DNA from: Cytospora piceicola
Taxonomy: Eukaryota > Ascomycota > Sordariomycetes > Diaporthales > Cytosporaceae
Assembly (NCBI GenBank): GCA_023375675.1
Contig: JALQBC010000017.1
Span: 620,001-684,000 of the forward strand
Reading direction: 5' to 3'
DNA length: 64,000 nt
Part shown: positions 1,473 through 55,065 of the stretch, piece after piece
Layout of the letters: each line of letters opens with the position of its first letter
Position numbering within the stretch: the stretch's first letter is position 1
Notes under the pieces: generated by a model
Seen by the model: only the letters and a program-made list of their open reading frames with translations
Told to the model about the DNA's origin: nothing
The model's database searches: none
Position numbers and translations under genes: made by a program

Positions 1473-2195
1473 TTAAATCCGCGAATAACACGTCGAGTAA
1501 TTCAGCGATACCTTGGTGCTGATGTCCTCCAGCGGGCCAGGGTCGATTCCCTTCAGCACCTCGATGCAGTGATCCGTATGGTGGTACTCCAACAGCCTTC
1601 CGGGGACCCCCATGCTGGAGTTGCGCAGGATCCTCGTCATCATCTTCCAGATGAACTGGCAGTGGTAGTCGTGGTAGTCCCACGAGAGCCACATGGCCTC
1701 CTCGATGCCCAGCGCCGCCCGGTCCTGCGAGATCTTCTCGCCGCCCACGCCGCCCCGCTCCCGCCACCACTCCGACTCGCGCTCCCGGTACGCGACCTGG
1801 ATCTCCTCGTCGTAGCACGGCGCCGGCACCCACGAGTACAGCACCAGGTCGAACCTGCAGCCCCGCTCGCGCGCCTCCTGGGGCGACGCCCCGCACATGG
1901 GCCCGTTCTCCACCGGCTCCTCGCCCGCCCGCAGCGGGCGGTCCAGCTCCCACTCCGGGTAGAGGCTGACGGGCCGGAGGGCGGCCATCCGGAGGCTGGC
2001 CGTCGCGCTGAGGATGGCGAGGGAGAGGGCCAGGCCGGCGAGGATGCCGTATGCTGTGTAGAGGAGGCCGTTTCGCCGCGGCGAGGACTTGACGATGATT
2101 GTCCGGGTCTCGTCGCTCTCGAAGGAGGAAGAGGAGTGGTCCTTGTGGGACAGGAGACCTTCCTCGACCAGGTCGTCGTCTTTCATGGAAGCCAT
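1473..2195 (-). CDS. UstYa-like (DUF3328) membrane oxidase, copy 1
   Basis: A single 240-residue frame from the ATG at 2195. A longer frame from 2369 exists, but its extra N terminus holds a good donor (GTATGT near 2316) and looks like a 5' leader with an intron. The protein has a short polar N terminus, one transmembrane helix (about residues 45-68) and a lumenal domain. That domain carries the two HxxHC motifs of the UstYa/DUF3328 family: HDYHC at 175-179 and HTDHC at 206-210. It also has paired cysteines (C101, C113, C127) typical of this subfamily. UstYa-type proteins oxidise and cyclise core peptides in fungal RiPP pathways such as ustiloxin and asperipin, and some act in other pathways. 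The neighbouring paralogue (3362-4168) and the repeat precursor at 7825-8628 support a peptide-modifying role. That role is inferred from context. Confidence 0.82.
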   Translation of the reverse strand: MASMKDDDLVEEGLLSHKDHSSSSFESDETRTIIVKSSPRRNGLLYTAYGILAGLALSLAILSATASLRMAALRPVSLYPEWELDRPLRAGEEPVENGPMCGASPQEARERGCRFDLVLYSWVPAPCYDEEIQVAYRERESEWWRERGGVGGEKISQDRAALGIEEAMWLSWDYHDYHCQFIWKMMTRILRNSSMGVPGRLLEYHHTDHCIEVLKGIDPGPLEDISTKVSLNYSTCYSRI

Positions 2196-3361
2196 GTCTG
2201 CTAGGGTGATGTTCCTTGTTCCTGTCGTGACTTGTAAGTATTTGAGCATATGATGAAGCCTCTCGATGGGCTCTCGGTGTGGGGGGGGGGGATCGGGTTT
2301 GCACCCATCAGGACATACTTGAGTACCCAGAAGCGTGTCTATCGAGAAGCCTCGCTCTAGTGTAGACAACAGGTGTGGTCAGAGACTTCTATGAAATTAT
2401 AAGGGACATAGAGCAATCCAGTTTCGAGGGGACCGAGATGACTACCTATTTGACGACGTCTGCGCTCTCTTTTCAGCTATATCTTCAAAGTGTTGCCGCG
2501 ATTCCGAGATGCTGGGCGCCTCGGTCACGCTCAAGAAGGCCCAGATCCATGTTTGTCCCCACCTGGACAGATTCTCCATGAATCCCCAGACCAGCGAATA
2601 CCGGTAACCAGGAAACCGTTCTACTTTTCCGCAAAATTCCGTAAAAATATGTCGGTTCAACCCACCCACCCCGGAGTGGCCCTCATGCAGTCCCACTTAC
2701 ACGATCCGAGCCTAGAACCGATCGATGGCTCCAACGGACTTGTTCGGTCTAGAACCAGAGCGGATTTCCGAAGATTGAATACTTGAAATATCCACCTCGT
2801 TAAGCAGGCAGGCGGGGTATGCATAATGCATAATGCATAAATGCAAGGCTCGGTAAGACAGCGGAAGTGCACGGAAATCGTGGAAACGGTGGGCTGGCCG
2901 GAGCCGGACTCTGTTGAACAACTTGAACGTTCCTCGCTGGTGCACGCACTCACATGTGAATAGGGACTGGGGACAAATGGTGACTCCGTCGTCGTCGTCT
3001 GGATTCTCCGCAAGTCGAGTGGCCATTCATGTTGGTGTTGCCTTTCTGTTGTTGTTTTCTTATCGTTCCAGAATTCCATCTTGTCCTTGTGGTCTATCAC
3101 TTGATAATCATCTCGAGGCGTATGAACATAGGTCATTATTATGGTAGCCAAGCAAAATATAATTATACAGTTTTTGTCTAAATTGTCACTTTGAGGCTAC
3201 TCTATATCAACAGGCATTTCAATGTTGGTACAAATATTGTGAGTGGGCAGGGAATCCATTTTCTCTTCTACTTCTTAGAAGTTATACTGTGCTGCTAAGA
3301 TATCTCCGCCCCATGCCTCTAACGAAAGCTCGCCATATAGACTATACATGTCGTCTACCCT
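2196..3361. other. Intergenic between the two UstYa-like genes
   Basis: No convincing gene. A G-run lies at about 2279-2291, and a short tandem GCATAATGCATAATGCATAA lies near 2819-2840. The open frames of up to 164 codons here show no domain and no splice logic. Confidence 0.55.
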
Positions 3362-4168
3362 TCAGCAAGTCATGAGCTCAACCGTAATCTTGGTCAACAA
3401 GTCCTCCATATCCCCCTGCTGCATCTGGACGTATCCACAGTGCATCGTGTGGTGGTAGTCGGCCAGCTTGTTCTCGATCTTGGTGCCCCTCTCCATCGCC
3501 CTGTGCATCTTGCGCCACTGGTACGAGCAGTGTGTCTTGTGGTACTTGAGCGACGTGTAGTACTCGTTCCCCGGCCCGACGCGGTACTGCAGGTCCTCCT
3601 CGGAGAGCTCCTGCGTCCCCTCCCGGTCCGCAAAGTACCGCCACGGGCCCTGGTCCCGGAAGTCCTGTGTGAGCTCCTGGTCGATGCACGCGGGCGGCAG
3701 CCAGGCCGCTGCCAGGAGGTCCCATGTGCAGTTCAGGGCCCTCGCCTCGTCGATTGTGCTCCCGCAGTTGGCGACGGCCTTGTCCTTCTCCGAGCCGTCG
3801 GAAGGGCCCAGGTGCTCCCAGTGGAGTGATTCTGGGTGGTCGTGGGCCGAATGGTCATGAGCGGGATGAGCGGCGTGGTCTTGGTGGGAGTGGTCCTGGG
3901 CAGCCATCTGGAGTGCCTGATCTTGGATCCGGGCAGGCCACCAGACGATGCCGGCGATGCATACTGCCATCAGCGCAGCAAGTATGACGCCGGAGATCAG
4001 GGAACGGATCCTCGTGCCCAGAGAGGCCCTCCGTCCCACCTTTGATAATGGGAATCCATTGGGTGACTCCTCGTCCCTGAGCCCGACCTTCTCGTAGACT
4101 TGCTCAGGCTTCCACTTCTGCATGATGAGCTGCTTGAGCAGGGGGAGAGATGTGTTTGACGTCGACAT
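3362..4168 (-). CDS. UstYa-like (DUF3328) membrane oxidase, copy 2, with His-rich juxtamembrane segment
   Basis: An uninterrupted 268-residue frame. In order: a cytosolic N terminus, one transmembrane helix (about 56-78), a striking His/Asp/Ala-rich stretch at 91-119 holding ten histidines, and a DUF3328-type lumenal domain. Both family motifs are present: HKTHC at 210-214 and HTMHC at 240-244. Conserved C135, C147 and C161 match the cysteines of copy 1 in order. The two proteins share the layout (W/LPP)AC(Y/I)D..E near the centre and DISTKVS versus DLLTKITV near the C terminus, so they are diverged paralogues. The family is known from RiPP maturation in ustiloxin-, phomopsin- and asperipin-type clusters. 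The His-rich spacer could bind a metal, which is inference. It is transcribed in the same direction as copy 1. Confidence 0.82.
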   Translation of the reverse strand: MSTSNTSLPLLKQLIMQKWKPEQVYEKVGLRDEESPNGFPLSKVGRRASLGTRIRSLISGVILAALMAVCIAGIVWWPARIQDQALQMAAQDHSHQDHAAHPAHDHSAHDHPESLHWEHLGPSDGSEKDKAVANCGSTIDEARALNCTWDLLAAAWLPPACIDQELTQDFRDQGPWRYFADREGTQELSEEDLQYRVGPGNEYYTSLKYHKTHCSYQWRKMHRAMERGTKIENKLADYHHTMHCGYVQMQQGDMEDLLTKITVELMTC

Positions 4169-5091
4169 CTGGTAGTAGTGAGCGATCTGAAGCTCGTTCT
4201 GCTAGTACGTCAGTTATAGATACCACCATGTTCAGAGAATCAGCTCACCTTTGGTGACGAGAGAAGCCAATCGTTAGGACTGAAGCAAAGGCAAACCTTA
4301 GTCACCAGTGGGCATTGTCCATACTTGTAACATAATGCACTCGATGTGTGAGTAGGATGTGAGGGTCACCGTCATGTGGATGCAGCTGGCTGCAACTAGA
4401 ATGTACCATCCAAATGCCAGTCCCGCCCAGAATTCCGAGTCCGACTGTTCGAGTCCGACCGTCAATGAAGAGGGTATCACATGCATATACCACTGAAATT
4501 TGGCCATGTCTAGTACGTTACCGGATAAAGAAACCCGCTGGAGTGGCACGCGTTGCGAGGTCCGAGTGTATATCACGAATTCCGAGCTGATGTGGGGACA
4601 CTGAGGGTTCGTTCCGAGCACAGCACAGCAAACTTCGGCTAGACTTGATACCCTGGAGGAACTGGAAGGCGGCAGGTGGACCAAGAGAATTGCCTGGGAA
4701 TTCAAGCAATAAGCATATGTAATTTTTGAATGTTGGTTTGAGGACATCAGACTGGAATACTCTTGGTTCAGTGTACCGTTTTCATAGTGCTCTTCGAGCT
4801 GTTCAGTGCAAGTCTGAGTTTACGGATCCGCACACCTCACCTACTTGCATTATTCCTCAGCAACGAGAGCCATTCACGTTCCACGCTCCGTCTAATTTTG
4901 ACCGCAATATACTAAACGGCACAAAACTTACGTGCTTCTGATGTTGTCACATTTTGACCCCTCGCCCTTGCGAGGGGCGAGGAAAATATTGTTCTTTTCG
5001 GCCCTGACCGGAGGTCTTGGAGGGTAGGTAAGCCTGTTGCAGCGCGCATTTGCTCACCTGCTTTTCCATAGCCCCACTGATCACTAATAGA
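4169..5091. other. Intergenic, possible promoter and unresolved first exon(s) of the MFS gene
   Basis: No independent gene is supported. The 149-codon frame on the minus strand at 4298-4747 has no recognisable domain. The 5' exon(s) of the adjacent transporter may lie at about 4980-5030 (a frame reading RRSWRV before a GTAAGC donor), but no start codon could be fixed. Confidence 0.45.
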
Positions 5092-6873
5092 ATGTAGCTT
5101 GCAAGGAGTCTTCTCAGTGCAAATGGCTATGGGCTCAGTAAGTCTCATGTAGCTGCCTTACTCCCTTCCGACCCACGTCGCGCTGACTGAAATCCAACAG
5201 CCATACCTCATGTCCCTGGGCTTCAGCAAGCCCCTAATCCCCTTCGTTTGGCTTGCAGGTCCACTTGCCGGTGTTGTCGGACAGCCATATTTCGGACTGT
5301 GCAGCGACCAGTGCCGTATACGCTGGGGTAGGCGAAAGACGTTCATCGCAGCTGGTGCCTTGGCCATCATAGTTTCCCTACCTGCGCTGGCGTGGGCCGG
5401 AGAAATGGTGCATACGGCCGCATGGGTCGTGGGCGGAAGACATGACCACCGCGCCCTACAGACGGTTACCATGGCAGCCGCAGCGATTCTCATATGGATA
5501 TTAAACTTCGCCATCCAGCCTCTCCAGTGCGGGCTCCGCGCCCTCATCGTCGAGACCTGCCCGCCGGAGCAGATGGACACCGCCAACGCGTGGGCTAGTC
5601 GCATGATCAGCATGGGAAGCCTTCTCGGCTACGGGTCTGGCTTCGTGGACCTCTCGCACCTGCTGCGCATCGAAGGCGGGCATACACAGTTCAAGGTCCT
5701 TTCCGTGTTGGCGACTTGCGGCCTGGCCGTCACGGTCTGTGTGTGCTGCTGCACGATACGAGAGCGAAACCCCAACGAGGATGGTCCACCGAGCAGAGAG
5801 CTGAAGAGCACGATGGGAAAAGCCAGGCATATATATGGCAGTATCTTCAAGATCCCGCCGCAGGTGGCCATGGTCTGTAAGGTACAGCTTTGCTCTTGGA
5901 TCGGATGGTTCTCGTTTATGTACTACATCACGACGTAAGTCATATTCCGGACGTGATACCTCGTCTGTGTCGACATCATGACTGACTTGATTTGGACCGA
6001 TGATAGATATATTGGTGAGATATGTAAGGATTCTCCGATGTCCCCATTATTGGCCAGAACCCGGGCTTACAAGAAACAGACTTGCAGAACATCCATCCAG
6101 TAGACCTCGCAGCCCGGAAGACAGCAAACCAATATGGCTCGTTCGCACTGCTCCTGTTCGCATCCGCTCAACTCCTCGCCAGCATCATAGCTCCATCCCT
6201 GATCACGAAGCAAGACCGGGACCTGCATCCAGTCCCAGACACAGTCGCAACAGGCGGAATAAAAACAGCCCTACCACGGTTCATCTCCCGGCACCTCAGC
6301 ACCCCCTGGTCCTCACTCTGCGCCCTCTGGGCGCTCTCGCACGCCATCTTCGCAGCCTGCATGTTCAGCACGCTCCTCGTCGGGAACAGCGTCGCCGGCG
6401 CCACCGCCCTGGTCGGCCTCGTGGGCATCAGTGCCGCGCTGTCGCAGCTCGTGCCCTTCACGCTCATCAGCCTCATCCTCTCGCAGCACCACGAGGGGCA
6501 TGCCGGCACCTACCGCGCCCCTCCTACCGACCCGACACGCGCTCTCGCCGAGGAGAAGCCCGCGGCGGGCTACGTGACCCAGCCCGGCATCGTCATGGGC
6601 ATCCACAACATGTCCATCGCGGCCCCGCAGCTGATCGCGGCCGTGGGGAGCAGCGCTGTGTTCTGGATGCTTGGTGCCGACGGCGGTGGCGACGGCGGGG
6701 ACGAGAGCAGGAGCACTGGGTGGGTTCTGCGGGCCGGCGGGCTTGCGGCGTTGGCGGCTATCTGGATGACGGTGAAGTTGCGGGACTCTTGTGGTAGGGT
6801 GGAGGATCTGGATGAGGATGGATCTGTATTTGACGACATAATACCGGAGCTGGAGTTGGGCATGGACTTGTAA
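5092..6873 (+). CDS. Sucrose-transporter-type (SUT/GPH-like) MFS protein
   Basis: Proposed exons are about 5092-5137, 5201-5934, 6007-6023 (only 17 nt) and 6080-6873. The joins read MAMGS/PYLMSLGFSK, MYYITT/YIGEI and EI/YLQNIHP in frame. The product resembles fungal and plant sucrose/H+ symporters. It has the SP-YL..LG.SK start of the second helix, WLAGPLAGVVGQPYFGLCSD followed by WGRRK (the loop 2-3 MFS motif), and LQCGLRALIVE..P..Q...ANAWASR in helix 5. FMYYITTYIGEIY ends helix 7, and C-terminal helices include FTLISLILS and GIHNMSIAAPQLIAA. The first helix and start codon are not resolved; the ATG at 5122 would leave helix 1 out. Transport of a disaccharide or glycoside is expected from the family. 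A cluster role, such as product export, is only possible by proximity. Confidence 0.75.
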
Positions 6874-7824
6874 CAGTTAGAGTGGCATCCTCGAGTAAAC
6901 ATGCGCACTTATGCTCAGTGCTTCAATGATCGACCTTGACCCCCTTCAGTGAATGTGTATCATTCAGCCTGGACGCTCCGTAATAACATGGCCCTAATTG
7001 GCTATGCCTATCCCTTTCCATCCCATTATCTTCTCTGCCTAACTAAAGACAGTTTAGTAAAGCCGACTCACCATAGAATTTGTTGAGAATGGCTGTTCGT
7101 AATGCCATTCTGGGCTTCTTGTAGAAACCCTTTGCCGAAATAGCCTTCAATATTTAGCCATCCAGGTCCAGCCATTGATATGAATGCGAAAACTTCATTC
7201 TGACTGAAGTATATGGCGGAAGTGTCACAGTTTTCCATAGGCGAAGACTACGGCAATATAATCGGTATATATTGCAAAGGTCCTCTTCTGGTGTAGCAAT
7301 GAATCAAACAATTATCCACCAAAATCTTATATCCCCGTCCCCAGCCACCACCTCGCATACATACCTAGTATTGATTCGACCCCAAGGTCGTTCTCGAACT
7401 GAGTATTAGACGTATCCATGAGTCACCTTCTCTACAGTTGACCAATCTTCTGCTTGAGGCAAATCTGACAGAACTTCACTGTTTACGGCAGTGGAAACAA
7501 TCAGGCGCAGCTTCAATATTCTCATCAATCTCAATAACATTCATTCTCGTCATGGGCGCTATGTGGTTTGATAGCAACGAGCATTCAAACGCTCCACGCC
7601 TCCTTTCCGCTTTCCAGACCTGGCAACTCGTCGAACCAACCACCTTTAGAATCAATCTACTATGGGCCACCCGGACCACTGCCAAGACCAAGACCATTGA
7701 CCGACAGAAGAAACGGTCCTTATTCCGAATTCGAACTACTTTGATGCGTTAGTTATATGCAAGCATATAATTCACGGATGGAGTACTCACGGTGAATAGC
7801 TCCTCAGCTGGTAGCAACACTCCT
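6874..7824. other. Intergenic between the MFS gene and the repeat precursor (convergent 3' ends)
   Basis: Holds the 3' regions of both genes. The 104-codon plus-strand frame at 7438-7752 has no recognisable features. Bases 7801-7824 contain a decayed in-frame repeat unit beyond the precursor stop codon (see findings). Confidence 0.55.
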
Positions 7825-8628
7825 TTAGTCAGAGGTAGCGACGTTTCGCTTCTCAGAGGTGGCGACGTTCCTCTTGTCTGAAGTCGCAACATTTCGCTTC
7901 TCAGAGGTAGCGACGTTCCGGGCATCGACATCGCTGGTAGCAACGTTCCGGGTCTCGACGTCGCTGGTGGCCACATTTCTCTTCTCAGAGGTAGCGACGT
8001 TGCGCTTGTCAGAAGTAGCAACGTTCCGGGCCTCGACGTCGCTGGTAGCTACATTTCTCTTCTCAGAAGTGGCAACATTGCGGGCATCGACATCACTAGT
8101 AGCCACATTTCTCTTCTCAGAGGTAGCGACATTTCGGGCGTCAACCTCGCTGGTAGCAACATTCCGCTTCTCGGAAGTGGCAACGTTGCGAGCATCCACG
8201 TCGCTAGTAGCGACGTTCCTCTTGTCAGAGGTAGCGACATTTCGGGCATCGACATCGCTGGTAGCAACATTTCTCTTGTCGGATGTGGCGACGTTTCGGG
8301 CCTCAACATCACTAGTAGCCTGGAGACCATTGTTAAGGCCCATCTTTACATCCATACCTGGGTGGAAGGGGAACTCCTCTGAACTTACAACATTGCGCTT
8401 CTCCACATCGTCGCTTGTAGCAACATTGCGCTTCTCAGCATCGTCGCTGGTAGCGACATTGCGCCTTGTGAGTGCGAGGACAGTGGGGGTAAGCATGTTG
8501 CGCTTCGCCGGGAAGCCATCACTGGTGGTGATATCACCCGAAGTTGCAACATTCCTCTTCTCAGTAGGCAGGGCGGAACCCAGGCCAGCGGCCAGGGCTG
8601 CGTAGGCAACAACAGAGTTGAACTTCAT
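7825..8628 (-). CDS. Secreted Kex2-processed repeat precursor, candidate RiPP precursor
   Basis: A single-exon frame of 267 residues. Residues 1-20 form a signal peptide ending GLGSAL, followed by PTE and the first KR (24-25). The rest is tandem repeats: 21 perfect RNVATS copies starting at R25, R56, R67 and then from R111 to R261. There are also a degenerate NVVSS copy at 78-83 and a non-repeat spacer at 84-105. Fourteen KR sites and one RR site are present. Units come as 8-mers, NVATS(D/E)KR, and 10-mers, NVATS(D/E)V(D/E)AR. From R119 to R209 they alternate with an exact 18-residue (54-bp) period. KR cleavage would release NVATSD, NVATSE and 16-mers made of two units joined by V(D/E)AR. This architecture (signal peptide, Kex2 sites, near-identical cores) is that of dikaritin RiPP precursors and of repellent-type secreted repeat proteins. 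The two UstYa-like genes within 7 kb favour the RiPP reading. No known product with this core is recognised. Confidence 0.85.
   Translation of the reverse strand: MKFNSVVAYAALAAGLGSALPTEKRNVATSGDITTSDGFPAKRNMLTPTVLALTRRNVATSDDAEKRNVATSDDVEKRNVVSSEEFPFHPGMDVKMGLNNGLQATSDVEARNVATSDKRNVATSDVDARNVATSDKRNVATSDVDARNVATSEKRNVATSEVDARNVATSEKRNVATSDVDARNVATSEKRNVATSDVEARNVATSDKRNVATSEKRNVATSDVETRNVATSDVDARNVATSEKRNVATSDKRNVATSEKRNVATSD
7861..8272 (-). repeat. Coding tandem repeats of the precursor (24-, 30- and 54-bp units)
   Basis: DNA copies of the RNVATS units. The block includes five successive 54-bp repeats (residues 119-209), then 24- and 30-bp units. Unit copies differ mainly at synonymous sites and at D/E and A/T switches. 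Confidence 0.9.
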
Positions 8629-9924
8629 GGTGGCGGTCGGTGGATTGTTGCAAAGATGTCAGAGAAAAGTGCAGGTGGCCGAGTAGACTGTGATTCTGGA
8701 GTGGGTTGAGTAGCAAGCAATTGAGGGAGCAACGGTAAGACTGGTGATGTCCTCTCTATTATACTGTGCCATCATCCACGGTCTTGCATGTGCTCGAGGC
8801 TCGGCTCGGATAACAGCCTGGTATCCTACTCGCTGAGCAACTATGGCCAGGAGTCCAAAAGCACACAAGCACAATACCGAGCTGCCTCGATGGCTGAGCA
8901 CAACAAACACGGTTCCGGTTGGCAGAGGTTGCGGATAGCAAGCAGCAGTCGGATAGAGTATAGCTTGCAGACATATGCCGAGTAGGAAGCAATCTTGAAG
9001 TTCGGATTGGAACTTTGGCATGGTACAATAGTCTTTGCACAATGCGGCTCTGAGTAGCATAAGCTTTCCGGACAATGAATGGTACGAAAGTACATAGAAT
9101 TCGGATATAAGCATCGAGAATTATGCAGTTCCGAGGAACGTCTGCCCAGGCATGTACCTTACGGTATGTAGTCGAGAACAATTCCGAAATCACTATTAGC
9201 AATCTTATCATGTCGTTCGGATAGAGCTCTCGTTACACTGACACCAACCGAGTGAGGCCGTGACCCGCATCCACTGTGGGCAACATACCCTTAAGGGTAT
9301 GCAGGTAAACACTGTTGATGTGACACAATTCCGAGGGACCAATGATGGTGGAGTGCCAGGGTGGTATTGGGTAGGGGGAACCGGGACATGAAGGTGGGTT
9401 CCGAGACATGCATATTACGGACTTGCATGCATGCATAACCGGCATTACACTACCCTGGGGTATGTACTGTAATTGGGAAATGGGGGTGACAATCGACCTC
9501 TTTCCTGGTTATTAGTGTACTGAATTAGCACATACGCACCAGTTGACTACTCATAAAGCTCCTGCAGGAGGTCCGGAGTAAATTCTTGATTAGGACTTAG
9601 CGTGACAGACCCAGGAACATATCCGTACTGAGTGGCATTCATGTGAAGTGCTGAACGTTGAACAATTGACCCACGGCACCTTGAGGGAAAAACTGAGAAG
9701 GGGGGGAGGAAGAAGGAGGGCATTGTTTTGAAAAACACCCACCGCTCTTACATCAGTGACTCACCTACCATACATACACAGCACTACACTATAACACGCA
9801 CTACCTAGTACCTAGTCGGTCGGTCAGTTAGGAGTTCACGTCCTGTCCTCAGCATCAAACGCTCGTCGGTGTGCCTGATCTCCTCCCCTTGGTTGTACCT
9901 GACATCTTCTACAATTCAATTGCC
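8629..9924. other. Divergent promoter region between precursor and MFS gene
   Basis: About 1.3 kb between the precursor start (8628) and the transporter start (9925), which are transcribed away from each other. No gene is supported; minus-strand frames of up to 151 codons lack family features. Scattered GTTCCGAG/AATTCCGA-like words recur (for example near 9002, 9098, 9130, 9182, 9327 and 9400). They could be regulator sites, but this was not tested. Confidence 0.5.
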
Positions 9925-11370
9925 ATGACACTCACAACTGGGTCTACCGACGGCGTCACGTCCAGAGCCAATGCCAATGACGATGCCACCGCCCTTCCAA
10001 ACCCCGACTGGTCAGCCGAAAAGGATGAGAAAGATATCCACGATACTTCCACCCCGACTCCCAAGACCACAGGCGAGTCCAGCCTACACAGCCTACCAGC
10101 TGGGCCCGAGGCGCCCCAATCAGACCTCGAAGTCGGCGGCAATATCGCCACCACGGTGGTCGTGCCAGGCCCTCCACCGGATGGAGGTCTCCAGGCCTGG
10201 CTGCAGGTGCTCATCGCCCACCTGGTCATCTTCAACACCTGGGGCTACATCAACTCCTTTGGCGTGTTCCAGACCTACTACATCAGCATCCTCGACCAGT
10301 CGCCCTCGGACATCTCGTGGATCGGCTCGGTCCAGGTCTTCCTGCTCTTCTTCATCGGAGCCTTTTCCGGCCGCGCAACCGACGCGGGCTACTTCCGGCA
10401 CATATTCGTCATCGGTACCATCCTCATCCTTCTCGGCGTCTTCATGACTTCGATATGTACCGAATACTGGCAGCTGTTCCTCGCCCAGGGCATCTGCAGC
10501 GGGATTGGGAACGGCCTCCTGTTTTGCCCGACCCTGGCCATCCTCCCCACATACTTCAGCAAGAACAGGGCCATGGCCGTCGGACTGGCTGCCTCGGGCA
10601 CCACAACCGGAGGCATGATCATCCCCGGCCTCTTCGAGGGCCTCCTACCTCGCGTGGGATTCGGATGGACCCTGCGGGTGCTGGGCCTGATCATGCTGGT
10701 CTTCCAGGTGATCTGCTTCCTCCTGTCACGGACTCGGGTCCCGCCCCGGAGCGTCGGTCCCCTCGTGGAGATCTCGGCTTTCAAGGAGGTTCCCTACCTC
10801 CTCTTCGCCATCGGCATCTTCTTCTGCTTCTGGGGTATATATCCCGCCTACTACTACGTGGGCGAGTACGCAAGCAGCGTCATCGGCATCTCCCAGGGCG
10901 CCTCCATCAACCTCCTCATCGTCATGAACGGCATTGGCGTCGTCGGCCGGCTCCTGCCACCCTTCCTCTCCGACAGGTACACCGGCCCGACCAACATGAT
11001 GATCCCCTTCGTGCTGCTGTCCGCTGTGACGCTCTACTGCTGGGCGGCCATCTTCACCCAGAGCGGCCTCTGGGCCTTCGCCACCATCTACGGGCTCTTC
11101 AGCTCCGGCGTCAACAGCCTCTTCCCCACCGCCCTGTCCAGCCTGACCACTGACATGACAAAGATGGGAGTGAGGATGGGAATGGTTTATACCCTTATCA
11201 GCTTCGCCACCCTGACCGGCACGCCCATCGCCGGCGCCCTGATCGGTGCCGATGGCGGTAGCTACCTGGGCATGGAGATGTTTTCCGCCTCGCTGTTGAT
11301 GATCGGGGCCATCATGCTGGTCGCGGCGAGGATATCAAGGACGGGGTGGAAGCTGAAGGCGAGGATGTAG
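9925..11370 (+). CDS. Monocarboxylate-transporter-type MFS permease
   Basis: An intron-free frame of 481 residues from the ATG at 9925. A longer frame opens upstream only with a non-ATG codon. A hydrophilic N terminus of about 80 residues precedes PPPDGGLQAWLQVL, the conserved [D/E]GG.[G/Q]AW entry motif of fungal MCT-family transporters. Twelve helices follow, with FNTWGYINSFGVFQTYY in helix 1, DISWIGSVQVFLLFFIGAFSGR in helix 2 and GIGNGLLFCPTLAILPTYF in helices 4-5. NRAMAVGLAASGTTTGGMIIP is typical of this subfamily. The family moves monocarboxylates or related small acids across the plasma membrane, and in clusters it may export products. It is divergently transcribed from the repeat precursor with a shared 1.3-kb promoter, so co-regulation is plausible. 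Confidence 0.88.
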   Translation: MTLTTGSTDGVTSRANANDDATALPNPDWSAEKDEKDIHDTSTPTPKTTGESSLHSLPAGPEAPQSDLEVGGNIATTVVVPGPPPDGGLQAWLQVLIAHLVIFNTWGYINSFGVFQTYYISILDQSPSDISWIGSVQVFLLFFIGAFSGRATDAGYFRHIFVIGTILILLGVFMTSICTEYWQLFLAQGICSGIGNGLLFCPTLAILPTYFSKNRAMAVGLAASGTTTGGMIIPGLFEGLLPRVGFGWTLRVLGLIMLVFQVICFLLSRTRVPPRSVGPLVEISAFKEVPYLLFAIGIFFCFWGIYPAYYYVGEYASSVIGISQGASINLLIVMNGIGVVGRLLPPFLSDRYTGPTNMMIPFVLLSAVTLYCWAAIFTQSGLWAFATIYGLFSSGVNSLFPTALSSLTTDMTKMGVRMGMVYTLISFATLTGTPIAGALIGADGGSYLGMEMFSASLLMIGAIMLVAARISRTGWKLKARM

Positions 11371-11628
11371 AAGGTCTGTATTAATGCTGCGTCTACATAG
11401 GGCTAGGTACTTAAGTGTGTAATATCAGATCTACTGGCAGACCTGGACCTCGGGGATCACTCTGTGTGAAACGGTGGACGTCACATTCTGGTACTATCAA
11501 TATGTCACCTAGGTAGGAGGTTGGATTTTTCTCAGTAGATTGAGGAAGAGGTGCGTATGTGATAGACAGTATCGAAGGAGTGTCCACCACCCCAATGATA
11601 ATTGGTACCTTCCTTCACACAGACAACC
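11371..11628. other. Short intergenic gap, convergent 3' ends
   Basis: 3' untranslated regions of the MFS gene and the Zn2Cys6 gene. Nothing else is seen. Confidence 0.6.
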
Positions 11629-14376
11629 TCAGACCTTGCACTGCTGCTGAGCCAGCGAAATCAGCTCCATGATCTTGTTGAAGGCAATGTCGTGGGCCTT
11701 GTCCCTGTTTGTGTTGGCCAGACGGCCAAGCCACCCGCTCGCCATGCCGAGGAAGGCCATGTTGCTCCGGAAGTCCTCCGATCGGTCCTTGCTGAAGACG
11801 TCGATGAGAAGCACACAGCACGCCATGATCGGCACCTGCACGATCAGCCTATGAGGACGGTCAGCATTATCGTGACGGTGTTACTTGGCGGCGGGTCTTG
11901 GTTCTCGCGCCTACTTACCAGTCTGAATACGTGGCGCTGCCTGGCTCCCATAGGTGCGCTTGAGAGAGCACCTCCCGTGCCGACTGCACGCATGGATTGC
12001 CTCTGTCGTTTTCGGTTAGCGCAGGTATTCCTTCAGCGGAGGGGGCTGTAAACGTGAGGAAATGGTTCTCGTATTTACTTGTGGTGAATAGTGACTTTCA
12101 GTTCGTGCCACCGTAGATATAACTCGACGTGACTCTCATGAGAACTCTGTAATGTCGCCCAGTCAGGTACGGATAATCCTGGATCCATCCGTGTCGGCCC
12201 ACGTTGCCCTGATGTGAAATCCTTCCAAGATTGCAGGAGCATGTCTAAAGAGTCGAGCGTCTCCTGGATATCGTTGCGGCGTACTCTGGACTTTGTGATG
12301 CCATAGAGTTGTTTGACGACCATGGAGCACAGCTTGGCGTGCTCGCAGAGATGGATGAAGAGACCTGGTTGGTTAGTATTGTCAGGTCCTGGAGGGCATT
12401 GAATCGTCCGCGGAGAAAAGTCAATCAAATCATCATCAATAGACTGCAGATTCTGTCAGCAACAGTGTACGAGTCTAGCTTGACAGAAGGATGTCCTACT
12501 GAGAAGCGTCCGAGTCTCATCGCTAAAGGCTTTTCTAAAGAATAAACCACCCAGAAAATTCGTCGCAGGAGCTGGTACTCTTGTTCGGAACTTGCCATGG
12601 CGCGAACATTATTATTTCGATTTAGCTTCAGTGATAAGCAATGTTGTACTGCCGTGGATACCAAAGACCAGGCCAGCGTAGATGTCTGAAGACCCCCGGC
12701 CTCAAGATATATGGTCTGCTCAAGGATTAGCTAAACATCTTGTGGACACATAGCATGACAATTAACGTTACCATTGCAATGAGGGCCTAGAAAATCAACG
12801 TTGATGTTAGCAGTGACATTCTGGGTTTTGGAGTCCGCTATTAAGTTACCTGCACTGCGGTAATGGAAGCATGAGCTTGTGTCTCTGCTAGATGGCTACG
12901 GGCTCTTGAAGCCACTGCGTAATAATGCCGGGCTTCTCGATCGGCAATACTGGAATCGTTGGTTCTGCGCTTTTGAACAAGACGGCAACCAAGAGCGAGA
13001 ACTGCGTTGACGAGAGGGACAGCAGGATTGTCCTCAGGAAGTTTCCCTGTGAGCAAAGCTTCCGTTGAAGACTGAAACTGGTCTCTGAGAATAAATGGAA
13101 ACCTCCTGTGATATGTATTTAGCATATATTCCCTATCCTTGTTTTTGTTCACGTTACGTACTGATGGTACTGGTCAAAGTAAGCTGCAATGCATTCGTCA
13201 GTGTCCATATCAAAGTAAATTGCGAGGATCATACCCACCATCGGCATATTCCTGAACAACGTGACGCTCGTAGGAGGGGTGGTGTGTTGTTGCCGAACCA
13301 TCTTCGTTTGACGCAATTGGGAATGCTGTAGCATCAAGTGCTTTGGCAGCAACTTCTTGCAAAAGTGTGCGAATGGAAGACCGATGTTGATTATCGGCAA
13401 TATGGTCTAGGCTGGAACATACGATACTCGCAAGACTTGATGATTCATCTACAACCTTGAGTTAGACCCTACTCGAGCTGCTTGTGCCACAATATATCGG
13501 GATGCTTACTGGCGTACGTTTCCTCTTCCTTGAAAGACAGTTAGTATGTATTTGTAGACAACGTAGGTCACATGTCTTGCAATCGGGAGATCTAACCTGT
13601 TGAACGGTACCAGTCTCAGCCGGGCTGCCTATCAATGCCTGGTCTGCGGAGGGGAACAAGCTTTCTAATGGGCTCAGGACTTCGGCGTGGGGCTTTGTGA
13701 GTCCGTTTTGGCGTGGCAAATTCTCATTCTGATTGTCCATTCGATCGGTTGTCCAGTTCGTGCCTTCTCCAAAAAAGGTTATGTCCATTGGGAGAACCCC
13801 AGACAGGTTGACATCTTCAACGATAGAAGTAGGCCAGGAGAACACGTCCATATCAAGCACATCCAGAGTACTCTGCGCATCCAGAAGCTGATAATCTGTC
13901 GAGACATCTGTGACAGGGTCCATGCTCAAAGCCGGACGGTGAGGATGGGTCAATGGAGAAGATCCGGCTGAAATGATTTAGTATATATGAATCGAGGTGG
14001 AATACGGAAGGATGTGCTCTCTGGTCTGGTAGGATTGGTACTTACCACATGCATCGTTGACTGACTGGGTTCTCCTCCTGGAATCCGGATATGTGCATCT
14101 TGTACCTTGCCTCTGCCATGTGTCAGAACAATAAGCCAAATATTACTTGTTTTATACAGTCCCAGTGCTTGCAATGTGCTCTCTTACCTCACAAACAGAG
14201 CACATGGGTGTTTTCCCATCACCTGACAAGTCAACAATCTGTATCCTAGGAAATGACACGAAGGGAAGAATAATGGACATACATCGGACTTTTCTCGACT
14301 TGCAACTGGCACACGCCCCTCTCCGCCTAACAATCTTTCGATTTGTTGGAGCTTGAACGTTCTCCATCACGTACAT
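11629..14376 (-). CDS. Zn2Cys6 transcription factor with fungal-specific domain, multi-exon
   Basis: Exons 14376-14283, 14222-14188, 14112-14046 and 13967-13597 join in frame to give CASCKSRKVRC/DGKTPMCSVCE/RQGTRCTYP. This is a complete six-cysteine binuclear zinc cluster with a downstream basic RRR. Further exons lie at about 13400-13149, 13090-12841, 12664-12430, 12425-12085, 12010-11915 and 11841-11629. They carry the middle homology region: SSIRTLLQKLLP, MVGMILAIYFD, RRFPFILRDQF, AVLALGCRL, TSTLAWSLVSTAVQHCLSL, then LLRRIFWVVYSLEKPLAMRLGR. The C terminus is SDWLIVQVPIMACCVLLIDVF..QQQCKV. The last regions match the PF04082 regulatory-domain pattern with its RR.FW..Y..(E/D) box. Junctions after 13597 are approximate. 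No disruption was seen, so it is probably functional. By position it is the candidate pathway regulator of the repeat-precursor locus. Confidence 0.82.
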
Positions 14377-28030: not shown

Positions 28031-30149
28031 GTTCCTGACTTGAAGACGCAGAAGTAGTGGTCAGGTGAGAAACTCGGGAAAACAGGTCTGTTTGACTACC
28101 TGACTACCTACCGAGGTACCTAGGTAGGTAGGGTTCAACGTCAAGACTTGATAAATAACCTTGGAAGCTTTTGGTGCGAAGGCGTTTGTGCAACAATCTA
28201 GTCTTGGTGGAAGACAGAAGGTGTCGTGCTCAGTGTATGCGCTTGGAAAAATCGATAAAGTGGGAGGGTAAACGAAGGTATGCGCGTCTTTGGGTTGGGG
28301 TCCCGAGTACTTGAGAAGGTTCTCTAGTGAAAGAGGCAGGAGTAATGAAGAGGAACCGAGTAGGAAGGAAGGCTTGCAATGAATTCGGGCACGCTTCTAG
28401 ATGTTGGCAACCGTGTTGGAACTTGTGAGTGTTCCCTGGAAATTTGAGGAGGAGGGAGGGGGGCGAAGGGTATCAGAGATGTGTGCATTTGTTTGTGTGA
28501 TGGAACTTCGTCGTTGCAGTGTTGTAGACGTGGTAAGTGCTGATGTTGTGGTCCATTGGTGAAGCAAAGATCTCCGTGATAACGGACAGCACCAGAAGCA
28601 CGACTCCAGGTCACTGCGTAAGTATGTTGGTTGCCAAAGTACAGAAATGTGGTGGTGTTCTCTGATGACTAGAAAGGAAGGAATCTGGCGCTCATATGAG
28701 AAAGCAGCACCTGGGCAGTCAATCTCGGGGAGGTCAATGTGGAAAGGCGACGGAGAAAGGTACATCGGCCAAGCCGCCTCCTGTGCCGCCGCAGATATTG
28801 TGCAAGAGATGGATTCCCAAGAGGGCTTCGACGCTGTCGAAGACTTATGAGGGCAAGAGACTCAAAGAGACTGGCTGTCTTCCGAAACAAGCCAGGTTTA
28901 TGACCGCTGAGTTGAGTAGTTCAAGGTCAGTAGTTGAAAGTGGTAATGTAGAGGAGTAGTTACTGATAATAAGAAAAGAGAAAAAGGGTCGTCAGAAGAC
29001 GCAGGTGACTTGAAGAAGAAAGAGGGAGGGAACAGGAGGGAAAGAGATAGAACACTATGTTCAAGTACCTAAGTAGGCAACGAGAAAGAAGCTCCTCACC
29101 GGTGATGGCCCGTTGACCACAAAACCTACACACTCAAGCCCGTTCCCTTGAACGCAGTTACTTCAGTACCCACACGCAACTATTTTAGTCGGTTGGCTTG
29201 GCTTGAATGGTTGTTTTGAAGACGTTGAACCTGTCATAGTTCGAGGGCTCTTCAACTTGGAAGTCGTCCCCACAAGACGGCCGACGAAACTGGGGAACGA
29301 CACGATTATCAAGGCTTGTGGCTCGGAAGTAACAAGAACGGAAGGTTCAGCATCACCTTCCTAAGTTCACAGAAACTAAGAATACTGCCTAGACTACAGG
29401 CAATATGCAAAATGTCAAGTTGTTGCAGCAATATGTTGGGGTTCTTCTCCCTGCCTGACAAATGGTTCAGTGAGCTGATATGCTGGAGGTAAGGGAACGA
29501 GCCACAGTGAAAGTCTTTTACTTGAACACTCCCTTCATGCTTCAAAACGTAAGGCCATCTCACCAATTTACACTTACGAGTTACCAGAAACACACCCAAT
29601 ATATGTCTGAAAGTAAGTGAGGCGTATATGTATTCCATTCTCTGCGCCTTTCAAGAACTGAAGGACGGACTGATGATAACAGATGGCTTGAATCCAACCC
29701 TCAGATTCGCTTACAGCGCACGTAGCACTTTAGTACGTAGCTCCTTGATGTGCGCTATAACTACCTACTTAAGTAGGTAGGTACTAATCCAGTCATCCCT
29801 AGAGTTGGTCGGACGGGATTTCCTACTAGACTTCTCTATCGCTTATCCATCCAGCGAGCCCGGAAGGGTCGCCTCGATTTGGGCTGATTTCGGTGAGAAT
29901 GGATCATGTAAATATTCGAAGCAGTCCGGGAGGAGGCCGTAGTTGTAGATACGTCAGGCTGGATGGATGCTGTGAGCCGACTGATATTTTTGATATTTAT
30001 TCAAGACGCGAATAGAACGATGTTGGCTGCCTAAGAAACTGGTCGTTGTTCGAGTTAGTCAACAATTAACAATGGTTGTGGTCTGAGCGTGGGATAAATA
30101 TCGCTGATGCGCAGCGGCATAGAAAAAGGTGGGCCTGCCGGCCAGTTTA
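28031..30149. other. Intergenic before the AT-rich island, no gene supported
   Basis: Helicase promoter side, then 2 kb without a convincing gene. Frames of 96-122 codons at 28.3-28.9 kb and 29.3-29.6 kb show no domains. TACCTAGGTAGG-type motifs occur at about 28110-28131 and 29762-29788. Confidence 0.5.
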
Positions 30150-31677
30150 CCGGTACTTTATTCCTTTATATACGTAAGCTCTATCTTATTTAGCGGTTAT
30201 ACAGTTAGTCTTTTTTACCTATAAAACGTCCGTATACTAACAGCCTGTTAATCGATAACGATTTACGCCTATAAAATAGCTAAGTATTAATAGATAATAT
30301 ATATTAGCTATTAAGCTTTTATTTTACTATTTACTATTATAAAAAGTAAAACTTTATATACCGGTATATATATATTATATACCTATTATATTACTCTGTT
30401 ATTATACTGCTTTAAGTAAATTATTTTACTTACTTTTTTTAAACTAGTTTCTATAATCGCTATAAGAACTTCTGCCTTACTATAGCTTTTCGATTACGTT
30501 ATAATAATACTCTTTATACTATATATTTACCTTATAACGTTACTTATAGTAAGTAGTTTTTAAAAGAGATTTCCGGAAATATATATATATAATATAGTTA
30601 TAATAACCGGCTACTATACTTATTTATATACCGGAGCTAAAAAAACTATATAACTAACTACTTATAAATAGTATCGAAAGTATTTTTATACTTAATTTAA
30701 AGCTTATAATAGTTAAGTATAAATTTTATAGTACTATATATTAAATAAACGAAAGACTTTCTATATATATTATAGGTATAAATACTATATTATAATTAAA
30801 TAAAATATTAATAATTTTACTATATAATAATCTATAGCTATAAACTTAAAGTTTAAAAAGTATTACTTATAAAGTAATATATATATTTTAGCTTTCCGGT
30901 CTTTATTATCTTTTTTATATAACCTATTATATAATACTATACTATATAGTAAAGCTTTTTATAAAAATATATAACGGTATAATAATATCTTTATCTTTAC
31001 TTTTATCGATTATAAAAAGATAAAGTATAATATTATAAACGGTAAACTTATAGATTTTTAGATTTATAAAGCTTTATATTACCGAACTAGCTTATTATAA
31101 GAAATATTAGGTTAAAGGCTATAATATATATAGCTATATTTCTATAATTTTAACTATACTTTTATACTTTATTTTATATTTAATAATAGCTTAAATATAG
31201 TAATTTTTAACTATATTATAAATTATCTATATAAGAATAATCTGTTTATTAATATATACTTTACTATATAAAAGCAGTTCCGATAGATAATAGGCCTAAT
31301 ATAAGTAGCTTTAAACTTATAAATATAATTAGTATTTAAAAATAAGGCCGACTAAAGATATATAAACCTTTTTATAGCCGATAAAGTTATTATTATTATT
31401 CTGTATAAGTATATAAATATTAACTTTCAGGATTTTATTTTTATAAAGTAAACTATAAATAGTATAAAGGTTATAGTCTTTTATTATATATAGCTATCTT
31501 ATCTTATATATCTTTTTTTTATATACCTTTTTATACTACTATATAATAACTATAACTAATATTAAAGAATAAAGGTTTAAGATTTATAAGATATTAGCTA
31601 TAAATCGGACTATATAAGCTTACGAAAATATAGCCGATATATTCTCTACCTATAAATAGTAAATCTATAGATACTAT

Positions 31678-31825
31678 TGTGGTGGCTAATAGGGGGCCAC
31701 CGTTTAGGTGGGTTCCTCGGCCCCACTTTTCTGTATGAATATCTATCGGGCGTTTAGGCCCTTCCATAGAAATAATCAACACACACACGAACATAACTAC
31801 CACTCGTACCTAAACGGCTACTACA
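31678..31825. repeat. Short LTR-like insertion (solo LTR candidate) in the RIP island
   Basis: A normal-composition 148-bp segment in AT-rich DNA. It starts TGTGGTGGCTAATAGG, ends GGCTACTACA, and has CTAT directly outside both ends (4 bp, or 5 bp with shifted borders). The TG..CA termini and the target duplication suggest a solo LTR. Confidence 0.6.
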
Positions 31826-34651
31826 CTATTTTCTTTTCGATAACTATTTTAATAGTTATTAATAAATTTATAGGTTATAATAGACTAAATAAAGCTTATT
31901 TAATTAAAAACTTATTAGACTAACTTATAAGTAAACTTATATAACGGTATTATAAACTAGCTATAGTAAAGTAATAACGATATAGCTTAAGTCGAAACCT
32001 ATATTATCTTATCTATAACGTATATTAAAAATTAGCAGTTTATTAGTTAATACTATTAAAACTTTATTATTATTATATAGGCTTTTAATATACTTATATT
32101 TTTTATTATAGTTACTACTAACTTTATATAACCGGAAATCTTCTATAAACTTAGTCCGAACGAGTTTATTATAAACCGTTTAAATATTATAAGTTATATA
32201 TTTTAACTTAAGTATAACGCTTTTTTAAAAAAACTACGAAATAAGCTATTTAAAGACTTTATAGGCGTAGTTTAAACTATCGAGTTTTAAAAACGAAGCC
32301 TACTTTATAAATATATCCTGTTATTTCTTACCTATAAGGCTATAGATCTTTATAAGCTTCCTGTAAATATCGACTATATAATTTATATAAAACTCTTTAC
32401 CCCGGAAGAAAATCTAAATAGCGTATTATAAAGTATTATAAAGAGTTCTATAGTATATAGTTTATATAATATAGTAAACCTATAAAGCCTTTATATATAG
32501 CCTTTTAAAACTACGGCTTTAGTTATTTATCGTAAGAACTTTCCGAAAGACTTTATAGACGAAACGTTAATACCGGAAGATAGATACCTATTTTATAAAC
32601 GCTATAATAATAGTTAAACTATAAAAAAAAAGGTAAATAACTAAAAGGTTTAGCTAAATAACCGCTAGGTTATACTATATAGCCTATACTTTTATTATAA
32701 ATACTAAATATATATTAATATAAAGATTTATATAACTATAAAAGCTATAAAGTATATTTATAAGTATATATATAAAGGTATAAATAAAGCTATAGTTACG
32801 TTATAAAATAGCTATACTTTTAATAAGATTATTATATATTTATAAGGCCGATATATAAGCCTTATAAAGGCGATTATATATTTATTTAAATACTTTATTT
32901 ATAAGGAGTTCTTACTTATAATACGTTTACCGGTTTACTTAAAAGGTTAACAGTTTATATACTTCTAAAATAATACTTTTTTATAAAAGGTTATAAGTAT
33001 TATAAACTGTAACAGGTTTTAATTAATAACGTTTTTTAACTATAATAAGAATAATATAAATAAGCGAAGGCTTTTATATATCGACTTTCTCTATTTTTAT
33101 ATTTAAAAATAATAATAAAAGTAATAATAGCCTTAGTAGTATAGTATTATAGTTAGCTATATATACTATATACTACCTATTATTAATAAGCCGTACTTCT
33201 TATAGCTTTTTCTTTATAATATCTATAGCCTATAGTTATTCGAATATATATAAACTATTAATAACGTTATTTATCCTACTTATAAGGCTACTTACTTTAC
33301 TATAAGTTTATTAAACTACGATAGTTATTAAACTACTTACTTTAAAAAGGCTACGGCTTAATAAACCGGCTTTATATTATAGCGTTTTTTTATTATTATA
33401 TTTCTTTATAAGAACGTTTTAAACTATACCGGGTTATAAAATATATTTACAGCTTCGATTTACGATAATTTACTATACCGTTTTCGTAGCTATACTAATA
33501 TCCTACCTAGCCTTTAAAAGCCGTATTTTAATTATAGCCTTTTCTTCTTTTAATAACAGCTTTATAAATACAAAAAAAACCTTAAAAATTTCGGTCTTTT
33601 TAAGCTATAATATAACTAAAAATCGGTATAGTTAAACTTATAGCTAAAGGTTAAGCTAAACTATAATATAGAAAACTAACAGCTATTTTATAATAACGTT
33701 TATAGCCGGTTTAATAAATAATAGTTGTTTATTTTCTAAAAGATTATTATTACGATAAAAACTATATTTAAAGACGTATACTTCTTTATCTAAAGCCCGA
33801 AAGAGATAAGGAAGATTTTTTTTTATAAAGCTTTTATAACGTATATATAAACTTACAGACAGGTTATTCTTTATATAGCCTCCTTTAATATTATAATATT
33901 ACTTCTCCCGGGCGGCTATATAGCTTACTTTCGCTTCCGGATCTTTATATCGATTTATTAAACGTTTATATATAATATTAAGAAAAACTTTAAGTTTATA
34001 GACCTATTATAAACTACGTCTTGTATTATTTAAAACGAAGTTCTTATATAGTATAAGTATTACTTTAAAGCTATAAACTATACGTTATAAGATATTATAT
34101 ATAACGATAAGTTATTTAATAAAATCTTTATAGCTTTTAATAATAATTTTACTTAAATTCTCCCGGTTATATAAAAGAAAGTATACGTATAGATTATATA
34201 GGTATTTTTATTATAGTCGTATATTTAGTCTAATATATAAGTTCGGCGTTTTATAGAGAATATATAAGTTTAAAAAGCTAATAAAAAGAACTATAGCTTT
34301 ATTTAATAGTTATAGAATATACCGTATAAACTAAAACTATATAGGTTAATCGAATTATACCTTATAATCTCTTTATATTCCGATATTATAAACTTCTTTT
34401 AAACGGTATACCTAAACTAGCTATTAATATAAGCCTTTTTTAACCCGGGTATATTTATAAACCGCTATATACTATCCGGGATAAATACTATTATTATAAA
34501 GCTAAATTATATTACCTTTTACTACTTTCCCGGCGATACTATAGCTTACTTAACTATTATAAAAGTTATAAACGGCTTTAAAAATATCTTTATAGCTAGC
34601 CTTTTACCGGAGTTTTTATAGTTTATAAAGTTTCTTTTTATTCTACCTACC

Positions 34652-34861
34652 TGTCACGATGCACTAGAATGATAGAGGCAAAGCTGCAATTCCAATGTAG
34701 ATGTGAGCATTTTGGCTAAAGAGAAAGGGAAAGGCTTAGGCATAGCCAGGCCCTTTCAATCAAAGGTCTAAATACTAAGGTACGGCGAGGCCTAGTGGGT
34801 CACCTGGTCTGTGCGCAGGCGCTAGGTCAGGTGACCCCTGGCCCTACGCCGTTCCGTCACA
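34652..34861. repeat. Solo LTR in the RIP island
   Basis: A 210-bp segment of normal composition starting TGTCACGATGCACTAG and ending GTTCCGTCACA. A perfect 5-bp duplication CTACC lies on both sides (34647-34651 and 34862-34866). This is a typical solo LTR after recombination. It carries no RIP-like depletion of CA/TG. Confidence 0.82.
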
Positions 34862-36517: not shown

Positions 36518-36562
36518 AGCTATAGCTATAGCTATAGCTATAGCTATAGCTATAGCTATAGT
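36518..36562. repeat. (AGCTAT)n microsatellite
   Basis: About seven uninterrupted hexamer copies inside the AT-rich island. Confidence 0.9.
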
Positions 36563-37437
36563 AGTTTTACCGGTATACTAAAATATAGTAGTTTTTATAA
36601 AAGACAAAGCGTTATTCGATCTTTATAAGCTATTATTGTTAATCTTATTTAACGTTATATAAAGTTGCTTAACCTGCTTACCTTTTTATAGCTTTTTTAT
36701 AAACTTTTAAACCGTAACGTAGTTATAACGTTTTTTATTTATAAGTATAGTAGTTATAAGCTTTACTACCTTTTTCTCTTTTATTATATTCTTTACCTTT
36801 TTTTTATCGGATAAGTTATAAGTCTAGCCTTTTTTCTTTAAGCTTATAACTTTATAAAACGTATAATAAATACCTTTTAAGTTATAATAGTAGTTACTAT
36901 AAGCCTTATAAGTAATACTTAAAACTTTATAGTAGCCTATAAATAAGCTTATAGCCTTTTAATAGTTTATATATACGATATATAAGCGGATTTTAATATT
37001 TATAATTTAAATTAATATAGCTTTTAAGTTAATAAACCGACTTTAATTAATAGTTTTATTACTTTATATAACGTAATTATACTTTACCTATACTATTATA
37101 AGTATTTTTATAGTTTATAGTTCGATTATAAAAGGTACTTACGTTTATTAGTATTAATAACTATATAGTTTTTATAAACTTTTCCGGTAAGTATAATATA
37201 GTATACTTTATACTAATAAATATAATATTACTTATAACTTTATTTATAGCCTTCGATATAGTTTTAATTAAAGCTTTATTAAGGTTATAGTTTTTAATAA
37301 TAAGCTTTATAATAGGCTTTATAATAATAACACGGCTTATAGTATTTAAAATTTAAATAAGCTACCGAAGCTATATAGCTGTTATAAACTAAATAAAGAT
37401 TAAAAGCTTAAAAAGGTTTACAGTCTTAAACGTGTTA

Positions 37438-40996: not shown

Positions 40997-41040
40997 CCCC
41001 TATATACCACTCATTACCTTCGATCTCCCACGGACGAAAG

Positions 41041-55034: not shown

Positions 55035-55065
<31 letters not shown>

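What the first reader, a model, noticed from the sequence alone, without database searches (positions are those of the whole stretch)
1473..14376. Candidate new fungal RiPP cluster: two UstYa-like oxidases, a Kex2-repeat precursor, transporters and a regulator
Within 13 kb lie two DUF3328 proteins with double HxxHC motifs, a secreted precursor with 21 RNVATS repeats cut by KR sites, two MFS genes and a Zn2Cys6 factor. In ustiloxin, phomopsin and asperipin clusters the same set of parts makes cyclised ribosomal peptides. No tyrosinase, methyltransferase or peptidase gene is visible here, so the pathway would be minimal or completed elsewhere.
Basis: partly seen in the sequence, partly recalled or inferred. 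Interest (0 to 1): 0.92.

Follow-up and report, generated by a model that had tools for sequence, protein, structure and literature searches.

The report
Fungal repeat-peptide cluster with UstYa-like proteins
A fungus carries a gene for a probably secreted protein built from 21 copies of one short peptide, close to two possible copper oxidases that the standard family database does not recognise, so it may make a small modified peptide by a route that current searches could miss.

Summary
The parts are real. The precursor (7825-8628, minus, 267 aa) has 21 RNVATS units, 14 KR and 1 RR. The units keep one pentapeptide while their codons fall into two lineages with different serine codons (TCN or AGY), so the peptide itself is under selection. 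The two 'DUF3328' proteins (A 1473-2195, B 3362-4168) have two HxxHC motifs and one N-terminal hydrophobic helix each, but neither matches Pfam UstYa (PF11807), and profile comparison links them to UstYa weakly, at the motif only. A and B form one family. The pair is adjacent in Cytospora mali and probably on four unnamed contigs. At least four more members lie in this genome; two are beside true UstYa genes, one of these also beside a second Kex2-repeat gene. Best reading: a Kex2-processed repeat peptide, probably oxidised by a family that resembles UstYa. Against it: the NVATS units hold no Tyr, Trp, Phe, His or Cys, so known dikaritin cross-links do not apply; no precursor relative was found; the gene neighbourhoods of relatives could not be read. 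A linear peptide with unrelated neighbours is a serious rival. New variant of a known kind; moderate interest.

The parts
1473..2195 (-). protein A, 240 aa: one N-terminal hydrophobic helix (about 44-62), conserved CG..EA...GC.FD.....W.P..C.D region, HDYHC (175-179) and HTDHC (206-210)
   Evidence: no PF11807 match
3362..4168 (-). protein B, 268 aa: same layout, HKTHC (210-214) and HTMHC (240-244); AF2 model confident from about residue 131
   Evidence: no Pfam match
5201..6873 (+). sucrose/GPH-like MFS gene with introns; first exon(s) upstream of 5138 not resolved
7825..8628 (-). Kex2-type repeat precursor, 267 aa, 21 RNVATS units, 14 KR and 1 RR
4169..5100 (.). region between B and the first MFS gene; 3 TTCCGAG/CTCGGAA sites (4433, 4580, 4612)
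   Evidence: suggestive only
8629..9924 (.). region between precursor and second MFS gene; 3 TTCCGAG/CTCGGAA sites (9129, 9329, 9399)
   Evidence: suggestive only
9925..11370 (+). monocarboxylate-like MFS gene, 481 aa, one open frame
11640..14367 (-). Zn2Cys6 transcription factor in several exons (lower end approximate, exon borders not resolved)

Best explanation
A small peptide-producing gene cluster. The precursor enters the secretory pathway (signal peptide by eye), is cut by Kex2 after KR/RR (inferred from the spacing of the sites; a gene with the Kex2-type P domain is in the genome) and is trimmed to NVATSD, NVATSE and 16-mers with two NVATS units (inferred). A and B, anchored in the membrane with their HxxHC domain in the lumen, form a copper centre like that of CctR, each as a homodimer or together, and oxidise the peptide at aliphatic positions (Val, Ala, Thr or Ser: hydroxylation, desaturation or an ether bridge; which one is unknown). 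The MFS proteins and the Zn2Cys6 factor serve export and control (inferred from position). Shown here: the parts, selection on the NVATS peptide, A and B as one family that PF11807 does not match, A next to B in Cytospora mali, and a member of the family close to another repeat precursor in this genome. Not shown: that A and B are enzymes, bind copper, or act on this precursor.
For: All 21 units keep RNVATS while synonymous differences are many (pS 0.754; pN 0.095, which with identical residues can come only from multi-step codon paths, mainly Ser TCN/AGY). 10 of 10 units followed by [DE]KR use TCN serine and 9 of the other 11 use AGY: two unit lineages encode one peptide. A and B have HxxHC twice, one N-terminal hydrophobic stretch and more positive charge before it than after it (+3 and +2 for A, +5 and 0 for B). 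In B's model the two motifs lie at the start of two helices (207-227, 240-249; block pLDDT 80-96), as described for CctR (PMC12435403, abstract and passages). The family has at least 6 genes at 5 places in this genome. Of the 4 places other than the window, 2 have a PF11807 match within 1.5 kb (C79, C2) and 1 (C2) has a six-repeat KEP about 3 kb away. With 5.25 KEPs per ascomycete strain (PMC7329392, abstract), a KEP within 5 kb of any of 4 random places has probability about 0.005, within 10 kb about 0.01 (uniform placement assumed). Pairing: Cytospora mali VM1G_07809 (A) and VM1G_07808 (B), and four more contig lengths shared by the two hit lists. TTCCGAG occurs 7 times in three upstream regions against 0.62 expected.
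Against: No Tyr, Trp, Phe, His or Cys in the NVATS units; the few aromatic and His residues (Phe 39, 86, 88; His 89) sit in two N-terminal fragments. 65.6% of KEPs near DUF3328 genes have Tyr in their repeats (PMC7329392, section 7). PF11807 is not matched by A or B and by 1 of 17 family members only at E 0.027. No precursor relative at E 0.001 among 7993 scored candidates (a capped list) although Diaporthe and Cytospora proteins are in the collection; A, in contrast, is 54-61% identical in four named Lecanoromycetes, so the pair may have a substrate of its own. 3 of the 5 places with the family have no KEP by my detector in 10 kb (two places on C1) or 30 kb (C79). At C2 the true UstYa gene may be the KEP's partner. 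The model of A is poor (pLDDT 52). The promoter motif was first seen by eye; the neutral test picks another 7-mer (ATGCATA), whose score 15 of 400 random triples reach.
Confidence: 0.5

Rival explanations
1. The precursor gives linear, only trimmed secreted peptides (a signal, surface or host-interaction peptide), as for many KEPs; A and B are a conserved pair with another substrate that happen to lie 3.7 kb away.
For: No aromatic, His or Cys residue in the NVATS units; 1758 of 7878 KEPs (22%) had DUF3328 neighbours, the others did not (PMC7329392, section 7); linear KEP peptides found in mushrooms (PMC9769878, passages); relatives of A and B were found, relatives of the precursor were not.
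Against: A member of the A/B family lies near a KEP at a second place and two lie beside true UstYa genes; a promoter motif is shared, weakly.
Confidence: 0.36
2. The repeat protein is a structural wall or surface protein and its KR sites are not processed.
For: Low-complexity protein rich in Ala, Val, Thr, Ser and Asn, no Pfam domain above cut-off.
Against: 15 dibasic sites, 12 KR and 1 RR directly before an NVATS unit; no Cys and no 19-residue hydrophobic stretch such as a C-terminal anchor signal; a gene with the Kex2-type P domain is in the genome.
Confidence: 0.1
3. A true dikaritin cluster of the ustiloxin/phomopsin/asperipin type.
For: Layout: KEP, two double-HxxHC proteins, MFS genes, Zn2Cys6 factor.
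Against: PF11807 not matched, no Tyr in the units, no tyrosinase on the contig (asperipin lacks one too, recalled). The same genome has a KEP with Tyr (EELYGP/EELYST) about 1 kb from a real PF11807 gene on C20, a better candidate for that type.
Confidence: 0.04

Closest known systems
Kex2-processed repeat proteins (KEPs), PMC7329392 and PMC6339444
   Same: many near-identical repeats between dibasic sites after a likely signal peptide; most KEP types are confined to one genus
   Different: NVATS[DE] is not among the conserved motifs that I read in PMC6339444 section 10 (the sequence logos of PMC7329392 are figures and were not seen); 8 of 21 units follow a single Arg (7 AR, 1 TR) instead of a dibasic site
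UstYa/DUF3328 copper enzymes (PF11807), such as UstYa/b, AprY and CctR
   Same: one N-terminal membrane helix, HxxHC(x)nHxxHC with motif starts 31 (A) and 30 (B) residues apart; 27-34 in five of six UstYa frames of this genome
   Different: no PF11807 match; a conserved stretch of its own (CG, EA, C, W, C, D) before the motifs; profile link to UstYa weak (probability 3.5-22.5%, single-pair E 0.012 to 0.0009)
Ustiloxin / phomopsin / asperipin-2a (dikaritins)
   Same: precursor layout, double-HxxHC proteins, MFS gene, Zn2Cys6 factor (known clusters partly recalled)
   Different: no Tyr in the units, no tyrosinase on the contig, oxidase-like proteins outside PF11807
Epichloecyclins (gigA)
   Same: KEP with a UstYa-type partner and no tyrosinase (recalled)
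   Different: not compared by sequence here

Membership tests
UstYa / DUF3328 (PF11807) | match to the Pfam profile | tested here: not met
   no match for A or B (limits E 0.1 and E 10; filters drop most above 0.1); 1 of 17 family members at E 0.027
UstYa / DUF3328 (PF11807) | HxxHC(x)nHxxHC | tested here: met
UstYa / DUF3328 (PF11807) | profile-profile similarity to true members | tested here: inconclusive
   hhalign probability 3.5, 22.5, 14.5%, yet single-pair E 0.012, 0.00093, 0.0019; 48, 20 and 52 columns, all at the motifs; the UstYa side had 6 frames, several of them partial
UstYa / DUF3328 (PF11807) | single N-terminal membrane helix | tested here: met
   (hydropathy: one stretch each), helices in the models
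UstYa / DUF3328 (PF11807) | HxxHC domain on the luminal side | tested here: inconclusive
   charge rule only; no topology program was run
UstYa / DUF3328 (PF11807) | four His on paired helices, two coppers, dimer | not testable with these tools
   helix placement in B fits; coordinates, dimer and metal not available; model of A too weak
KEP | at least 3 tandem repeats of 8 or more aa between dibasic sites, none over 100 aa | tested here: met
   definition in PMC7329392 section 13
KEP | signal peptide | tested here: inconclusive
   typical N-terminus by eye; no signal-peptide program at hand; the 19-residue hydropathy test flags nothing
Dikaritin | DUF3328 protein as class-defining enzyme | tested here: not met
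   no PF11807 match on the contig
Dikaritin | Tyr in the core for the oxidative cross-link | tested here: not met
   the only Tyr is residue 9, in the signal peptide
Dikaritin | modified, cyclic product | not testable with these tools
   needs mass spectrometry

The most novel reading that the evidence does not exclude
A and B represent a sister family of copper oxidases, outside PF11807, that serves Kex2-repeat peptides and works on purely aliphatic cores, perhaps as an A/B heterodimer. KEP clusters that use it would be counted as 'without DUF3328' in surveys that rely on the Pfam model, so a part of the supposedly linear KEPs would in truth be modified RiPPs.
Probability: 0.35. Interest if true: 0.75.

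Novelty: new variant of a known kind. Interest (0 to 1): 0.52.

Why it matters
The largest KEP survey that I read tells likely cyclic from likely linear peptides by DUF3328 neighbours (PMC7329392). A double-HxxHC family that the Pfam model does not see, kept next to its partner in Cytospora mali, with A relatives as far as lichen-forming fungi, and found near two repeat precursors in one genome, would change such counts and give a test case for copper chemistry on peptides without aromatic residues.

Tried and rejected

Rejected: that A and B are DUF3328 by profile; that the repeats are a recent neutral expansion. My KEP detector needs at least three similar peptides next to dibasic sites in one open frame, so it misses KEPs split by introns or with few repeats. 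Its looser run gave, besides the three KEPs, four frames that I did not count (L006, a shifted frame in L050, two Arg-rich frames in the window at 16580 and 41423). Two UstYa regions read at 10 kb each (C54, C33) hold no KEP by it, and of the 30 loci of about 3 kb around PF11807 matches only L007 does. The 24 PF11807 genes used are my grouping of 36 exon-wise matches; it could be up to about 29.

Full report
What is there. The window is contig C11:620001-684000 of a 43.6 Mb, 99-contig assembly. The nearest named relatives of the two oxidase-like proteins are from Diaporthe and Cytospora; Cytospora mali belongs to the Diaporthales, so the host is probably of that order (inference). Between 1473 and 14367 lie, in order, A (minus), B (minus), a sucrose/GPH-like MFS gene (plus), the repeat precursor (minus), a monocarboxylate-like MFS gene (plus) and a Zn2Cys6 factor (minus). 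To the left are a hemerythrin-like frame (23.5 bits, below its cut-off) and, beyond the window, UbiD and UbiX-type genes; to the right an aminotransferase class IV gene. I did not scan every frame of either side, and made no dedicated search for methyltransferases or peptidases.

The precursor. It has 267 residues and no Cys or Trp; its one Tyr is residue 9, in the likely signal peptide; Phe 39, 86, 88 and His 89 sit in two N-terminal fragments; the NVATS units have none of these. Cutting after KR/RR would give, after trimming, NVATSD, NVATSE, 16-mers such as NVATSDVDARNVATSE, one fragment with three NVATS units, and several N-terminal fragments that differ. Of 21 units 12 follow KR, 1 RR, 7 AR and 1 TR, so 8 of 21 stay joined to the unit before them unless a single Arg is cut. 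The units differ at 3.8 synonymous positions per pair on average, pS 0.754. All 10 units followed by [DE]KR use TCN serine; the 9 AGY units are among the other 11. Two unit lineages that no single silent change connects encode one pentapeptide. Under random substitution from the consensus, keeping RNVATS in all units has a log10 probability of about -50; the units are not independent, so the true figure is less extreme. The peptide is the selected thing.

The precursor has one match in the genome. In a collection of 5.8 billion proteins none of the 7993 scored candidates (capped) reaches E 0.001. KEP cores are mostly confined to one genus (PMC7329392, sections 6 and 9), so this counts little either way.

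The two oxidase-like proteins. Their profiles align over 143 columns at hhalign probability 99.7%. Neither matches PF11807. The same model gives 36 exon-wise matches in the genome: 34 over its cut-off, one more with its neighbours, one below; none on C11. Comparison with six UstYa frames of this genome gives probabilities of 3.5, 22.5 and 14.5% and single-pair E-values of 0.012, 0.0009 and 0.002, with only the motif regions aligned; this leaves remote kinship open. Of 17 family members one touches PF11807 at E 0.027. So they resemble UstYa in layout and motif, but are not members by the Pfam test. Their own conserved stretch before the motifs (CG, A, C, W, C and D invariant, E and D nearly so, in 17 sequences) is. 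In one paralogue (C1:938332) the first His of the first motif is Tyr, and the gene is cut by an intron.

B models well from about residue 131 on (block pLDDT 80-97), with one HxxHC at the start of each of two helices. CctR, a DUF3328 hydroxylase, was reported as a membrane homodimer with a binuclear copper site formed by that motif on paired helices (PMC12435403, abstract and passages). The model of A is too weak to judge. I had no coordinates, so the four-His plane was not measured. No PDB relative was found.

Conservation of the pair. The lists for B (21 rows) and A (20 rows) share five longest-contig lengths: 2839550 (Cytospora mali, VM1G_07808 and VM1G_07809), 8591, 10934, 35039 and 10530. 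Equal contig length is a proxy for co-location; in Cytospora mali the consecutive tags show it. A alone is named from four Lecanoromycetes (Circinaria, Protoblastenia, Mycoblastus, Stictis) at 54-61% identity. Whether a precursor lies beside any of these could not be read: no tool here gave their context.

The same family elsewhere in the genome. Besides A and B at least four genes were found: C79:18427, C2:121471, C1:261552 and C1:938332. C79 lies 1.2 kb from a PF11807 match and near a P450 and a beta-lactamase-type gene, with no KEP found in 2001-32000. C2 lies 1.5 kb from a PF11807 match and about 3 kb from a frame with six GEEDEAWVQAASKR repeats, preceded by a likely signal-peptide exon (by eye). 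The two C1 places show no KEP in the 10 kb read around each. Thus 1 of 4 further places has a KEP; at 5.25 KEPs per ascomycete strain the chance is about 0.005 for 5 kb and 0.01 for 10 kb if KEPs lie at random. The C2 gene might be there because of its UstYa neighbour. A third KEP, with Tyr (EELYGP, EELYST), lies about 1 kb from a PF11807 match on C20 and looks like the ordinary dikaritin type. Most of the DNA scanned was chosen around HxxHC genes, so these counts do not estimate a genome-wide rate.

Regulation. TTCCGAG/CTCGGAA occurs 7 times in the regions upstream of A (1), between B and the first MFS gene (3) and between precursor and second MFS gene (3), against 0.62 expected; 0 of 3242 overlapping background windows of 931 bases and 5 of 3130 of 1295 bases hold three. 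None lies upstream of the regulator. I saw the motif by eye first, and the neutral test picks another 7-mer (ATGCATA; 15 of 400 random triples reach its score). A hint of shared control, no more.

Verdict. A KEP cluster whose likely modifying proteins belong to a UstYa-like family without a Pfam model. The link between A/B and this precursor rests on position, on the C2 locus and on a weak promoter motif; the core without aromatic residues and the wider conservation of A/B speak against it. I give the modified-peptide reading 0.5 and the linear-peptide reading 0.36.

Noticed in passing
L050:2605-2967 (G000:C2:117605-117967, minus): second KEP: six GEEDEAWVQAASKR repeats, near a PF11807 match, a member of the A/B family and an arylamine N-acetyltransferase-type gene
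   Followed up: partly
L007:102-440 (G000:C20:83444-83782, minus): third KEP, with Tyr (EELYGP/EELYST), about 1 kb from a PF11807 match: an ordinary dikaritin candidate
   Followed up: partly
window 39528-58072: looks like a quinate utilisation cluster: type II dehydroquinase, shikimate dehydrogenase N-domain, xylose-isomerase-like barrel, sugar-type permease, AROM-like protein and a fungal transcription factor (Pfam; cluster name recalled)
   Followed up: partly
window 30001-38000: 8 kb AT-rich block (GC 0.18-0.30), perhaps repeats degraded by RIP (inference)
   Followed up: no
L035:3809-5940: UbiX-type flavoprotein and UbiD decarboxylase genes next to each other, left of the cluster
   Followed up: no
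L049 (G000:C79:12001-22000): A/B-family gene near a PF11807 match, a P450 and a beta-lactamase-type gene: another possible metabolite cluster
   Followed up: partly
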